Below the pieces are notes generated by a model. That model was not told the DNA's origin and did not search any database. It worked only from the letters and a program-made list of their open reading frames with translations. A stretch of DNA of 53,700 nucleotides. Source: Ruminiclostridium sp. Its GTDB lineage: Bacteria; Bacillota_A; Clostridia; Oscillospirales; Oscillospiraceae. The position numbers and the translations under genes were made by a program. Position 1 is the first letter of the stretch; each line of letters begins with the position of its first letter. Location of the stretch: NCBI GenBank assembly GCA_017521345.1, contig JAFXCU010000220.1, positions 1 to 53,700 of the forward strand. The letters run 5' to 3'. This document shows positions 2,544-36,315 of the stretch, piece by piece.

Positions 2544-5500
2544 TTATTTCAGCACCACGTTTTCCTCTCCCAGGTAGTCTTTCAGTTCCTGGAGGAGGGC
2601 ATCGTGGAGGAGGCACCGGGCGCCCAGACGGCGCTTGGTGTCGGCGAAGTAGAGGACGGCCTGGCTCTCCCCGGGGAACATGGTGAAGAGGTTCTTCACC
2701 CGCCGCAGGAGAGGGGTGGCCTCGGTGTCAAAGCGCAGGTAGAGCTTCCCCGTGTGGACCTGAGGAGCCCGGGCGGGGGGCTGATTGGGGTCGATGGGTG
2801 CCCCGGGCACATGGTGCAGGGGGGTCACCCGGTCGCACATGAGCTGGGGGGCCTTTTCGTCCCGGACGGAGATCCGGCCCATGGCCAGGATGGGGGTGTT
2901 CACCTGGAGGTAGGACCCGCTCTCCTCCAGCACCCGGGAGAAGGCCAGCAGCTCCACGGAGCCGGTGTCGTCCTCGATGGTCACATAGGCCATGAGGGAG
3001 TTGTTCTTGGTGGTCTTGGTCTTGGAGGCAGACACCACGCCGGCCAGGGCGATCTTCTGTCCGTCCTGGAAGTGGGTGGGGCCGTCGGCCTGGGCGAAGT
3101 CCTCCAGCATGAGGCCGATGGACACGGCCCCCTGGTTCCGGGCGGTCTCCCGGTAGGCGTCCATGGGGTGGCCGGAGAGGTAGAGGCCGGTGACCTCCTT
3201 CTCCATGGTCATAAGCTCCTGGGGGGTGAACTCCGGGATGTCCCGCAGGACCAGCTCCACAGGGGTGTCGGCGGTGTCGGAGCCCATGGAGAAGAGGTCG
3301 AACTGACCTTCCAGGTTCTTCCGGCGGTTCCGGGCCAGGCTGTCCAGGTGCTGCTCGTAGGCGTCCAGCAGCTGGGCCCGCTTGAGGCCCATGGAGTCGA
3401 AGGCGCCTGCCCGGATGAGGCTCTCCAGGACCCGCTTGTTCAGGTCCTGGTCCAGGAGCCGCTGGCAGAAGTCCGGGAAGGACCGGAAGGGGCCACCCGC
3501 CTGACGCTCAGCCAGGACTGCGTTGGTGAAGCCCCGGCCCACCCCCTTCAGGGCGGCCAGACCGAAGCGGATGTCCTTGTCCGCCACGGTGAAGTGGGGA
3601 CCGGACTGGTTGATGTCAGGGGGCAGGAGCCGGATGCCCATGGCCCGGCACTCTGCAATGTATTCTGCGATCTTGCCCTGGGAGTCCAGAACGGAGGTCA
3701 GCAGAGCGGCCATGTACTCCCGAGGGTAGTGGCACTTGAACCAGGCGGTCTGATAGGCCACGATGGCGTAGCACACGGCGTGGGCTTTGTTGAAGGCGTA
3801 GTTGGCGAAATCGGTGATCTCGTCATAGATGCTCTCGGCGATCTGGGCGGGGATCCCGTTGGCCACGCAGCCGGTGATGTTTCGGTCGGGGTCTCCGTGG
3901 AGGAAGGCGGCCCGTTCCCGCTGGATGTCCTTGAGCTTCTTCTTGGACATGGCCCGGCGGACCATATCTGCCTGGCCCAGGGAGTACCCGGCCAGACGGC
4001 GGAAGATCTCGATGACCTGCTCCTGGTAGACGATGCAGCCGTAGGTGTTGGCCAGGATGGGCTCCAGGGCAGGGGTCTTGTAGGTGACGGTCTTGGGGTT
4101 GTGCTTGGAGGAAATGAACCGGGGGATGGAGTCCATGGGGCCGGGCCGGTACAGGGCGATGATAGCCGTGATATCTTCGATATCCTTGGGCTTCAGGCCC
4201 ACGCACACGCCGGTCATGCCGGCGGATTCCATCTGGAACACGCCGCAGGTCTTGCCCTCGGAGAGCATCCGGAAGGTGGCCGGGTCGTCGTCGGGGATCT
4301 GGTCCAGGCGGAAGTCCGGGGTGTGGGCCTTCACCAGCTGGACGGCGTCGTCCAGAACGGTGAGGTTCCGCAGGGCCAGAAAGTCCATTTTCAGAAGCCC
4401 CAGCTCCTCCAGGGTGGTCATGGGGTACTGGGTGACCACGGCTTCGTCGTTCTTGGCCAGGGGGACGTAGGTGTCCGCCGGGTTTCGGGTGATGACCACG
4501 CCGGCGGCGTGGGTGGAGGCGTGGCGGGGCATGCCCTCCAGCTCCTTGGCGGTGTCGATGAGCTTTTTCACCGTGGGGTCGCTCTCGTACATCTCCCGGA
4601 GGGGCTTGGACAGGTTCAGGGCGTTCTCCAGGGTGATGTGCAGGGCATTGGGCACCTGCTTGGCGATGGCGTCCACCTCGGCATAGGGGATGTTCAGGGC
4701 ACGGCCCACGTCCCGGATGGCCCCCTTGGCGGCCATGGTGCCGAAGGTGACGATCTGGGCCACATGGTCTGCCCCGTACTTCCGGTTGACATAGTCAATG
4801 ACCTCGCCCCGGCGGCGGTAGCAGAAGTCCACGTCGATATCGGGCATGGACACACGTTCCGGGTTCAGGAAGCGCTCGAAGTACAGGGAATACTTCATGG
4901 GGTCCACGTCGGTGATGTCCAGGCAGTAGGCCACCATGGAGCCTGCGGCGGAGCCGCGGCCGGGGCCCACGGGGATATCCTGGGATTTTGCGTAGCCGAT
5001 GAAGTCGGAGACGATGAGGAAGTATTCCACAAAGCCCATCCGGCGGATCATGGCCATCTCGTATTCCAGCTGGTCCAGGTATTCCTGGGAGCCGTTGGGG
5101 TAGCGCCGGGCAAAGCCCTGGCGGCAGAGGGTCTCAAAGTAGGCGTCCCCGTCGGTGAAGCCCTCGGGGAGCTTGAACTCAGGCAGGTGGTAGGTGCCGA
5201 ACTGGAAGTCCACGTTACACCGCTCAGCGATGCGGGCGGTGTTTTCTATGGCCTCGGGCCAGTCGGGGAAGAGGGCTGCCATCTCCTCTTCGCTCTTGAT
5301 GTAGAACTCTTCGGTCTCGAAGCGCATCCGGTTGGGGTCCTCCACGGTGCGGCCCATCTGGACGCACATGAGGACGTCCTGGATGGCGGCGTCCTTCCGG
5401 GTCAGGTAGTGGGCGTCGTTGGTGACCACCAGGGGGATGCCGGTCTCCTTGTGGAGCCTTAAAAGCCCCCGGGCGGCATCCTTCTGCTCCGGGATGCTGT

Positions 5501-7610: not shown

Positions 7611-7736
7611 CCTCGTAGAGTTTCGCCGCTTTGCGGCGAAATAAAGTTCAATTCGTTTTTTGCGGGGACATGCGCCTCGCAAAAAACTCTACTCGGCACG
7701 AGAGTGCCTGTTTTACAGGCGCGGGTCGTGCCGCAA
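7611..7736 (-). repeat. Three-stem structured element, copy A (minus orientation)
   Basis: Read on the minus strand it has three stems. Stem 1 is CGGCACGA/TCGTGCCG (7726-7733 with 7694-7701), enclosing GCCTG-CAGGC. Stem 2 is TTTTTTGCG/CGCAAAAAA (7678-7686 with 7656-7664), with GCGCATGTC in the loop. Stem 3 is TTTCGCCGC/GCGGCGAAA (7633-7641 with 7621-7629). It ends in CTCTACGAGG. Copies B (10055-10190) and C (28371-28497) keep the stems with different but complementary sequence. It lies directly downstream of rapZ, co-oriented with it. Confidence 0.8.
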
Positions 7737-9983: not shown

Positions 9984-10017
9984 TAAAAAAAGAAGCCGCT
10001 ATGCGGCTTCTTTTTTT
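9984..10017. terminator. Terminator of rubrerythrin
   Basis: Perfect stem GAAGCCGC-TAT-GCGGCTTC flanked by seven A and seven T, directly after the rubrerythrin stop. Bidirectional by symmetry. Confidence 0.9.
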
Positions 10018-10020
10018 ACT

Positions 10021-10054: not shown

Positions 10055-10190
10055 TTGCGGCCTGTTGCAGCGCACGCCTTGTGCCAAGGCGCACGTTTAC
10101 AGGCCGAGAAGTGTTTTCTGGCACGCACATGTCGCGCCAGAAAACGAACTTGACTTTATTTCGTCGCTGCGGCGACGAAACTCTACGAGG
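10055..10190 (+). repeat. Three-stem structured element, copy B
   Basis: Stem 1 is CGGCCTGT/ACAGGCCG (10058-10065 with 10099-10106), enclosing GCCTT-AAGGC. Stem 2 is GTTTTCTGGC/GCCAGAAAAC (10113-10122 with 10136-10145), with GCACATGTC in the loop. Stem 3 is TTTCGTCGC/GCGACGAAA (10159-10167 with 10172-10180, loop TGCG). It ends in CTCTACGAGG. It shares GAACTTGA before stem 3 and the loop motifs with copies A and C while stem sequences differ. It lies between convergent genes, co-oriented with rubrerythrin. Confidence 0.8.
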
Positions 10191-25332: not shown

Positions 25333-25340
25333 GTACGACA

Positions 25341-25503
25341 ATGATAGAGGCGCGGTGCGCATCAGTACCCTCCATTCCCGGCAGGAACACCGGGAGGGGA
25401 AAGGGCTCACCGCCGAAGGGTTCTCCGGGTGCCTGACCGGGGGATGCCTGGGCCGTCAGAGAACATCTGCCGGACTGCCATTGGACCAATGGAGCGCTAT
25501 CAT
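25341..25503 (+). ncRNA. Lysine riboswitch (L box) aptamer
   Basis: The P1 stem is ATGATAG (25341-25347) with CTATCAT (25497-25503). Conserved core pieces appear in order: GATAGAGGCGC, ATCAGTA, GGGGAAAGG, CGCCGAAG, GGGATGCCTGG, ACTGCCATTGG and GGAGCGCTATC. Order, spacing and length match the lysine riboswitch. It binds lysine and, with the terminator at 25541-25580, should switch off the downstream ABC transporter genes when lysine is plentiful. Confidence 0.9.
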
Positions 25504-25540
25504 GGTGAATGGGGAAGCAGTCTGTCCCCTGCGTATGCAA

Positions 25541-28305: not shown

Positions 28306-28317
28306 ACAAGACTTTTC

Positions 28318-28359
28318 AAATAAAGGGAGTGGAGCCGATGGCTTCACTCCCTTTATTTA
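28318..28359. terminator. Terminator of the lysine ABC operon
   Basis: Stem AAATAAAGGGAGTGGAGCC with GGCTTCACTCCCTTTATTT, loop GAT. Flanking ACTTTT and AAAAGT can extend it. It lies 13 bp after the stop codon and leads into structured element copy C. Confidence 0.88.
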
Positions 28360-28370
28360 AAAAGTGGGAG

Positions 28371-28497
28371 TTGCGGCCCGACCCGCGCCTGCGAAGCAGG
28401 CACTCTCGGGCCGAGAAGAGAAAAATCTCCGGCGCATGTCCGGAGATTTTTCGGATCGGACTTGATTCCGGTTCTGCGGAACCGGAACTCTGCGAGG
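28371..28497 (+). repeat. Three-stem structured element, copy C
   Basis: Stem 1 is CGGCCCGA/TCGGGCCG (28374-28381 with 28406-28413), enclosing GCCTGC-GAA-GCAGGC. Stem 2 is AAAAATCTCCGG/CCGGAGATTTTT (28421-28432 with 28440-28451), loop CGCATGT. Stem 3 is TTCCGGTTC/GAACCGGAA (28466-28474 with 28479-28487, loop TGCG). It ends in CTCTGCGAGG. Compared with copies A and B every stem has changed on both sides. It is co-oriented with the ABC operon upstream. Confidence 0.82.
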
Positions 28498-36282: not shown

Positions 36283-36298
36283 CGTTTGTCGGAGTGGT

Positions 36299-36315
36299 GG
36301 CGAAACTTTACGGGG
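36299..36315 (+). repeat. Possible remnant of the structured element tail
   Basis: GGCGAAACTTTACGGGG resembles the stem-3 half and tail of the structured element (GGCGAAACTCTACGAGG in copy A). The rest of the element is absent. Confidence 0.3.

What the first reader, a model, noticed from the sequence alone, without database searches (positions are those of the whole stretch)
28371..28497. Dispersed three-stem element with compensatory changes in all stems (copies at 7611, 10055 and 28371)
Three copies share loops and linkers: TTGCGGC at the start, GCRCATGTC in loop 2, GAACTTGA-like before stem 3, CTCTRCGAGG at the end. Their stems differ and yet stay perfectly paired. Stem 1: CGGCACGA/TCGTGCCG, CGGCCTGT/ACAGGCCG, CGGCCCGA/TCGGGCCG. 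Stem 2: TTTTTTGCG, GTTTTCTGGC and AAAAATCTCCGG with exact complements. Stem 3: TTTCGCCGC, TTTCGTCGC and TTCCGGTTC with exact complements. Such covariation points to selection on structure, as an RNA or as a foldable single-stranded mobile DNA. All three are co-oriented with the gene upstream and follow it directly, each preceded by another hairpin. I do not recognise it as a named family.
Basis: partly seen in the sequence, partly recalled or inferred. Interest (0 to 1): 0.8.

Follow-up and report, generated by a model that had tools for sequence, protein, structure and literature searches.

The report
Terminator-hopping mini-transposon with hairpin core
The three look-alike hairpin elements are old copies of a small, very common jumping DNA of gut bacteria that lands in gene-end hairpins, often duplicating the whole hairpin, and whose own folded core stays base-paired from copy to copy for a reason still unknown.

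Summary
Three copies (7611-7736 -, 10055-10190 +, 28371-28497 +) share loops while stems differ and stay paired; each also has a 5' 'stem 0'. The family is mobile: matched in 108 of 200 genomes sampled from the family of Flavonifractor sp. An10, with 12-81 matches in each of five genomes. Copies with intact ends are mostly 202-215 bp, bounded by CAGnnTGTCGAAAAAG inverted repeats; 25 of 42 such copies lie between two copies of one locus-specific terminator hairpin. An orthologous empty site has one terminator. Four complete IS1182-family insertion sequences have the same ends and hairpin duplication. So it is best read as a non-autonomous IS1182-type element (MITE), end-decayed in the window. 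The core is not explained by that: 31 of 36 pairs covary, the loop is fixed, and mismatch asymmetry points to the complementary strand as the folded one. But G.U pairs are nearly absent, orthologs swap whole stems, some pairs break uncompensated, and hairpins duplicated at insertion show compensated changes as often as broken ones, so template switching may make part of the covariation. Whether the core is under selection is unsettled: it diverges less than its flank in 6 of 9 ortholog pairs, more in 3. Function open.

The parts
28371..28497 (+). copy c3, core: stem 1 28374-28381/28406-28413, inner hairpin 28387-28392/28396-28401, stem 2 28420-28432/28440-28452 with loop CGCATGT 28433-28439, stem 3 28466-28474/28479-28487, tail CTCTGCGAGG 28488-28497
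   Evidence: element also at the site in L311 (G002) and L312 (G005); absent in L313, which matches the window on both sides (long hairpin instead), and in L314-L317, L320, L321, matched by the upstream gene only
28311..28365 (+). stem 0 of c3, a long hairpin five bases after the stop codon of the upstream ABC-transporter ATPase gene, where a terminator would be expected
   Evidence: one C.A mismatch in the window that is C-G in L082 (by eye)
10055..10190 (+). copy c2, core
   Evidence: ortholog L014
10020..10047 (+). stem 0 of c2 with a degenerate 5' inverted repeat (TGTCGGAAAAGG; TGTCGAAAAAGG in ortholog L014)
9985..10019 (+). terminator-like hairpin of the rubrerythrin gene directly before c2
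   Evidence: sequence; gene named
7611..7736 (-). copy c1, core; ends 11 bases before the whiA start codon (7599)
   Evidence: like element in L297 (G447), truncated in L296/L060 (G002), no element in L304 (G005), L298, L303, L306
7742..7836 (-). stem 0 of c1, with about 65 bases in its loop, starting at the rapZ stop codon
6667..7599 (-). whiA-like gene downstream of c1 (context)
   Evidence: TIGR00647, 187.9 bits
7836..8699 (-). rapZ-like gene upstream of c1 (context)
   Evidence: NF003828, 327.1 bits
9438..9971 (+). rubrerythrin gene upstream of c2 (context)
   Evidence: NF045767, 233.2 bits
27562..28305 (+). ABC transporter ATPase gene upstream of c3 (context)
   Evidence: PF00005 135.5 bits; the best NCBIfam matches (amino-acid transporters) are below their cut-offs

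Best explanation
A non-autonomous, IS1182-type miniature transposable element. Step 1 (inferred): an IS1182-family DDE transposase acting in trans recognises the inverted repeats CAGnnTGTCGAAAAAG ... CTTTTTCGACAnnCTG. Step 2 (products shown, chemistry inferred): it joins the element to the two feet of a transcription-terminator hairpin, one on each strand; gap filling then duplicates the whole hairpin, mostly in direct orientation, so the upstream gene keeps a terminator. Copies that begin right at a stop codon without a duplicated hairpin may come from the hairpin-replacing mode described for IS1272, or from later loss (inferred). Step 3 (shown): most copies examined lack recognisable ends yet keep the hairpin core; the window copies are of this kind. 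Step 4 (open): the core (stems 1-3, loop CRCATGT, tail CTCTRCGAGG) is held by selection on a fold of the complementary strand, by palindrome repair through template switching, or by both; I favour both, with template switching renewing stems and selection holding loop and tail.
For: Of 197 copies with enough flank (21 of 218 dropped near contig ends), a locus-specific flanking repeat is found in 25 of 42 with both inverted repeats (up to 2 mismatches each), 9 of 41 with one, 2 of 114 with none; mismatched flank pairs 1 of 600; of the 25, 20 direct, 3 inverted, 2 tied. Empty site: An10 locus L165 has stop-hairpin-element-hairpin; orthologous L190 and L194, matching on both sides, have one terminator. 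Window loci: c3 site without element in L313, which matches on both sides; c1 site clean between rapZ and whiA in L304, L298, L303, L306. Autonomous relatives: L210/L291 (1568 bp), L287 (1522), L288 (1496), L214 (1571) have the same ends and 30-36 bp duplicated hairpins; transposases score 340.7 (L210) and 371.4 (L214), 385 (L287) and 384.6 (L288) bits against NF033551, cut-off 270. Bias: 26 of 32 An10 matches have a co-oriented gene upstream, 1 of 32 lies between divergent genes. Literature: IS1272 (IS1182 family) inserts into terminator hairpins; whole-hairpin duplication appears there only as a model pathway (PMC4923244, PMC5678879; passages).
Against: IS1182 transposases over cut-off occur in only 19 of 200 family genomes; 13 of those 19 are among the 108 carrying the element, against 54% overall, so no clear association. 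Of the five genomes, PF13751 matches only G003 and G004; An82 (G001) has a copy with a 32-bp identical hairpin pair (L004, only the 5' repeat recognised) but no such transposase. 17 of 42 copies with both ends show no flanking repeat. Of 12 IS1182 loci examined, only 3 have both these ends and the hairpin pair. Only the ends, not the core, resemble the insertion sequences. No movement was observed, and the window's own copies have neither clear repeats nor duplication.
Confidence: 0.82

Rival explanations
1. The core is a mobile structured RNA encoded on the complementary strand: 5'-CCTCGYAGAG, stem 3, stem 2 with loop ACATGYG, stem 1, ending in stem 0 as terminator; IS1182 ends only carry it about. 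It could be true together with the best explanation.
For: After redundancy reduction (154 of 218 copies) stems 1-3 have 103 A.C against 51 G.U, p 3e-5, i.e. G.U on the complement. The third pair from the stem-2 loop is A.C 158, A-T 37, C-G 11 of 218, i.e. U.G, U-A, G-C on the complement. Loop ends change together: C..T 203, T..C 11 of 218, with no C..C or T..T, i.e. A.G to G.A on the complement. End-decayed copies keep stems (stem 3 98.8% Watson-Crick). Core against 3' flank divergence over all nine ortholog pairs with both flanks matched: 140/1126 against 107/445.
Against: The divergence result is mixed: lower in the core in 6 of 9 pairs, higher in 3 (L027/L085, L079/L275, L058/L235); my first count of 28/761 against 37/296 used only 6 of the 9. 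The A.C lean is not significant in stem 0 (82:64) or stem 3 alone (14:7). No promoter was looked for; hairpins lie on both sides of the core. G.U is rare on either strand. Single-stranded DNA would give the same asymmetry.
Confidence: 0.27
2. Stems are kept perfect and exchanged by DNA template switching or gene conversion at palindromes; the stems themselves have no function.
For: In 28 of 49 candidate flank pairs that could be matched, hairpins duplicated at insertion show 4 compensated, 4 broken and 0 G.U changes in 328 pairs, with 2 inverted and 9 otherwise changed loops. Orthologs differ in whole stems (L058/L235/L245; c3 against L122) or by several compensated changes (L263/L276). G.U 10 of 2882 cells. 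Mechanism known: PMC8794818 (passages).
Against: Does not explain the fixed loop and tail or the strand asymmetry. Duplicated terminators are themselves likely under selection, so they are not a neutral control.
Confidence: 0.35
3. It is a cis-acting 3' UTR or terminator-type RNA of the upstream gene (given strand).
For: 26 of 32 An10 matches have a co-oriented gene upstream; stem 0 stands where a terminator would be expected.
Against: The strand asymmetry points the other way; a terminator or stem 0 lies before the core; c1 sits in front of whiA; some relatives keep the genes without the element.
Confidence: 0.1
4. It is an IS200/IS605- or REP/RAYT-type single-strand element moved by a Y1 transposase.
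For: Hairpins with a conserved mismatch and loop resemble such ends in general form (recalled); Y1 matches exist in 4 of 5 genomes, in G001 and G004 only partial.
Against: Inverted repeats and long target duplications do not fit Y1 chemistry (established knowledge); G005 has 56 matches of the element and no Y1 match.
Confidence: 0.04
5. It is a retroelement or group IIC intron relic moved by a reverse transcriptase that targets terminators.
For: Terminator targeting and long, variable target duplications.
Against: No RVT_1 match in G002, G004 and G005, which have 75, 12 and 56 matches of the element; inverted repeats shared with IS1182 elements; no Rfam intron match in the window.
Confidence: 0.02

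Closest known systems
IS1182 family insertion sequences (transposase NCBIfam NF033551; IS1272 is the studied member)
   Same: Same inverted-repeat ends and duplication of a terminator-like hairpin as complete IS1182 elements L210/L291, L287, L288, L214; L210 and L214 also have a left subterminal hairpin like stem 0. IS1272 also lands in terminator hairpins.
   Different: No transposase; the covarying core was not seen in those insertion sequences. IS1272 is reported to delete or replace the hairpin without target duplication, whereas here the hairpin is duplicated.
Bacterial MITEs
   Same: Short, inverted repeats, target duplication, many copies, mostly between genes.
   Different: The target duplication is a whole hairpin (mostly about 20-35 bp, locus-specific); internal stems covary strongly while loop and tail are fixed.
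REP/REPIN and BOX-type intergenic repeats
   Same: Dispersed intergenic hairpins.
   Different: Inverted repeats and target duplications tie this family to IS1182, not to a RAYT; length and multi-stem layout differ (comparison recalled).
Mobile structured RNAs such as HEARO / omega RNAs
   Same: Dispersed structured units tied to a transposon family (recalled).
   Different: No Rfam match; a TnpB/IscB link was not searched for.

Membership tests
IS1182-type MITE | Terminal inverted repeats shared with an autonomous IS1182 element | tested here: met
   CAGnnTGTCGAAAA-type repeats (up to 2 mismatches) at both ends of 42 of 197 copies and of L210/L291, L287, L288, L214
IS1182-type MITE | Target duplication of the kind made by the autonomous element | tested here: met
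   25 of 42 copies with both ends; four insertion sequences with 30-36 bp hairpin pairs
IS1182-type MITE | Empty orthologous site with a single target | tested here: met
   L190, L194 against L165; c3 site L313, c1 site L304, L298, L303, L306 without element
IS1182-type MITE | Mobilised by an IS1182 transposase | not testable with these tools
   needs a transposition assay
IS1182-type MITE | Transposase present where copies look young | tested here: inconclusive
   An10 yes; An82 none found despite an identical hairpin pair
Structured non-coding RNA | Covariation beyond shuffled and slid controls | tested here: met
   no tree-aware test was run
Structured non-coding RNA | G.U pairs tolerated on the transcribed strand | tested here: inconclusive
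   rare on both strands; complement favoured 103:51
Structured non-coding RNA | Expression | not testable with these tools
   no RNA-seq at hand
Known Rfam family | Match above gathering score | tested here: not met
   only a lysine riboswitch elsewhere in the window
IS200/IS605 or REP/RAYT | Y1 transposase in every carrier genome | tested here: not met
   none in G005, 56 matches of the element; the assembly may be incomplete

The most novel reading that the evidence does not exclude
A transposon-borne structured RNA (or single-stranded DNA) encoded on the complementary strand has been spread through gut Oscillospiraceae by IS1182 ends and keeps folding at each site after the ends die: a bacterial dispersed-RNA family that uses terminators as safe landing sites.
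Probability: 0.22. Interest if true: 0.85.

Novelty: new variant of a known kind. Interest (0 to 1): 0.62.

Why it matters
It gives many natural examples of the whole-hairpin-duplication outcome that the IS1272 authors drew only as a model pathway, in abundant gut bacteria. It is also a warning case: covariation among dispersed palindromes may arise by template switching, so covariation statistics alone need not prove an RNA. And it leaves a testable puzzle: why loop and tail stay fixed in copies whose ends are gone.

Tried and rejected
Own-genome search and download were not possible. Rfam at lax threshold on the c3 region gave only matches below gathering score to unrelated families. Reverse transcriptase and Y1 transposase as movers were searched and disfavoured. 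A naive ORF caller and a first trained one misjudged strands in An10 loci; only the retrained one is used there; window gene calls are. RNAfold-based classes of stem changes in ortholog pairs did not follow the model structure and are not used. The core-against-flank count left out three of the nine ortholog pairs with both flanks matched (L058/L235, L067/L097, L148/L150); one search repeats it with all nine and is the one to trust. The pattern hits in Sulfuricella (L021) and Aminobacter (L066) got no model match and are taken as chance. A pairing between the GAGAAG linker and the CTCT tail was considered by eye; the tail does not follow the linker's changes. Association of IS1182 transposase with the element over 200 genomes was not clear (13 of 19 against 108 of 200). 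Two viral contigs matched the pattern and were not studied. Paper searches; no listed title or abstract start names this element. Beyond listings only passages of PMC5678879, PMC4923244, PMC10969869 and PMC8794818 were seen.

Full report
OBSERVATION. The three copies are real. A covariance model from them (R1) finds no further strong copy in the window. R1 gave 97 matches at E<=0.01 over the window and these 80 loci. Whole genomes reached through five loci held 16, 75, 81, 12 and 56 matches. A second model (R2, from 89 copies) matched 108 of 200 genomes of the family of Flavonifractor sp. An10 and 34 of 245 genomes drawn from its order (only the best 16 or 13 candidates per genome were scored, so counts are lower bounds). 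The window is closest to genome G002 (MAG Ruminiclostridium sp. RGIG3085): matching stretches are mostly 93-96% identical, with one of 89% and one of 82%.

ANATOMY. A hairpin, stem 0, stands 5' of the core (a strong hairpin found upstream of 209 of 218 copies). In copies with intact ends stem 0 begins with CAGnnTGTCGAAAAAG and the 3' end carries CTTTTTCGACAnnCTG. Conserved core parts on 89 copies: the loop CRCATGT closed by G-C, a G in the linker before stem 2, AACTCTRCGAGG at the end.

INSERTION. In An10 many copies stand between two copies of one terminator hairpin that differs from locus to locus. Tested over 197 copies with flanks long enough (21 of 218 dropped): 25 of 42 with both inverted repeats, 9 of 41 with one and 2 of 114 with none have such a repeat; mismatched flank pairs 1 of 600. 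An earlier test with other settings found 26 of 117, mismatched pairs 1 of 400. Of the 25, twenty are direct, three inverted and two tied; among the inverted ones only L164 is a plain loop inversion. The 25 run 202-215 bp from end to end in 21 cases and 235-279 in four. At the L165 locus, relatives L190 and L194, with matching sequence on both sides, have a single terminator. Of 32 An10 matches (two weak ones included) 26 have a co-oriented gene upstream, 5 lie reversed at the end of the downstream gene, 1 is between divergent genes.

PARTNER. An IS1182-family insertion sequence in An10 (L210/L291) has the same ends, a similar left subterminal hairpin and a 36-bp hairpin pair around it. Its transposase scores 340.7 bits against NF033551, cut-off 270. 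Of 12 IS1182 loci that were examined (L284-L295; L291 is the An10 one), 5 have these ends on both sides (L285, L287, L288, L289, L291) and 3 of them the hairpin pair (L287, L288, L291); L214 of G004 is a fourth case. The other seven do not show such an element, apart from a loose motif pair in L292 without duplication. IS1272, the studied member of the family, inserts into terminator hairpins but deletes them in part or replaces them (passages of PMC4923244 and PMC5678879); [quoted passage not shown] That ISfinder lists direct repeats of 0-60 bp for this family is recalled, not looked up.

A SECOND PASSENGER. An10 also holds another hairpin-rich element with the same left end, in three loci read by eye between like hairpins (L153 about 4420-4640, L165 about 2226-2430, L159 from 13969). 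Different cores therefore seem to share one set of ends.

THE WINDOW COPIES. By the automatic test all three lack both ends. c2 has a degenerate 5' repeat that is intact in its ortholog L014. The c3 site carries the element in L311 (G002) and L312 (G005). L313, which matches the window on both sides, has a long hairpin and no element; L314-L317, L320 and L321, matched only by the upstream gene, have a simple terminator and no element; L318 and L319 gave no sequence there. The c1 site, between rapZ and whiA, carries a like element in L297, a truncated one in L296, other variants in L299, L300 and L305, a remnant in L302, and is clean in L304, L298, L303, L306; L301 is unclear and L307-L309 are uninformative. 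Repeated insertion or repeated loss both fit.

WHY THE CORE VARIES SO. Covariation is strong, but the manner is odd. Of 2882 cells 2679 are Watson-Crick, 10 G.U, 153 A.C (67 of them in one conserved column) and 40 other; of 649 doubly changed Watson-Crick cells, 338 are flips such as C-G to G-C, 246 transitions and 65 other changes. Stems of 58 terminators in An10 loci and the window have 18 G.U and 13 A.C in 841 pairs. Orthologous copies can differ in whole stems while sharing a rare 3' end (L058, L235, L245) or differ by several compensated changes (L263/L276), and can also break pairs (c2/L014) (read by eye). In 28 of 49 candidate flank pairs that could be matched, hairpins that began identical at insertion show 4 compensated, 4 broken and 0 G.U changes over 328 pairs; their loops are the same in 17, inverted in 2, otherwise changed in 9. 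Template switching in DNA replication is known to make such changes (PMC8794818, passages). So covariation alone does not show selection for an RNA here.

IS THE CORE STILL UNDER SELECTION? For: loop and tail are fixed while stems turn over (the 218-copy set was picked partly by these motifs, the 89-copy set by the model). Copies with both ends gone keep stem 3 at 98.8% and stem 2 at 96.6% Watson-Crick, against 98.7% and 98.2% in copies with both ends (copies were also picked for at least 8 Watson-Crick pairs in stem 2, which flatters stem 2). Mixed: over all nine ortholog pairs with both flanks matched, the core has 140 changes in 1126 sites and the 50 bases after it 107 in 445, but the core is the slower part in six pairs and the faster in three.

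WHICH STRAND FOLDS. Non-Watson-Crick pairs lean to A.C over G.U (103 to 51 in stems 1-3 of 154 representatives), the conserved mismatch of stem 2 is a wobble on the complement, and the first and last loop bases change together, C..T 203 against T..C 11 of 218 with no C..C or T..T. All three point to the complementary strand as the folded one. In stem 0 the lean is not significant (82 to 64), nor in stem 3 alone (14 to 7), and copies are related, so the p value is a guide only.

WHAT REMAINS OPEN. Whether that strand acts as RNA or as single-stranded DNA, and what binds the loop. Promoters were not searched for. Co-occurrence with IS1182 transposases is loose (13 of 19 transposase genomes against 108 of 200 in all), which fits bursts followed by loss but does not prove it.

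Noticed in passing
L153 4420-4640, L165 2226-2430, L159 from 13969: A second hairpin-rich element family with the same left inverted repeat, standing between like terminator hairpins; in L153 the two hairpins differ by a compensated change and a new loop (by eye).
   Followed up: partly
L156 17804-17993 (-) and L077 2731-2906 (+): A small hairpin-rich insert of about 50 bases sits inside the stem-2 loop of two copies, in opposite orientations.
   Followed up: no
L300 and L305 (rapZ-whiA site): Copies whose stem-2 loop CRCATGT is gone, the stem closing on GGA instead; in L300 the tail reads AAGTCTGCGACG, in L305 it is lost: natural loop-loss variants.
   Followed up: no
window 36283-36315: Possible 3' remnant (GGCGAAACTTTACGGGG) between two genes; model match only E 0.57.
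   Followed up: no
L064 6238-6472: Two copies overlap tail to tail, as if one had inserted into the 3' hairpin of the other.
   Followed up: no
L223 732-774: A bare pair of inverted repeats around one short hairpin, with no core: a minimal element or a remnant.
   Followed up: no
window 25337-25507: Lysine riboswitch, 95.4 bits.
   Followed up: no
3' ends in L031, L029, L073: In these copies the 3' inverted repeat reads TTTTTTGACA or GTTTTTGACA, which could serve as an outward -35 box for the neighbouring gene.
   Followed up: no
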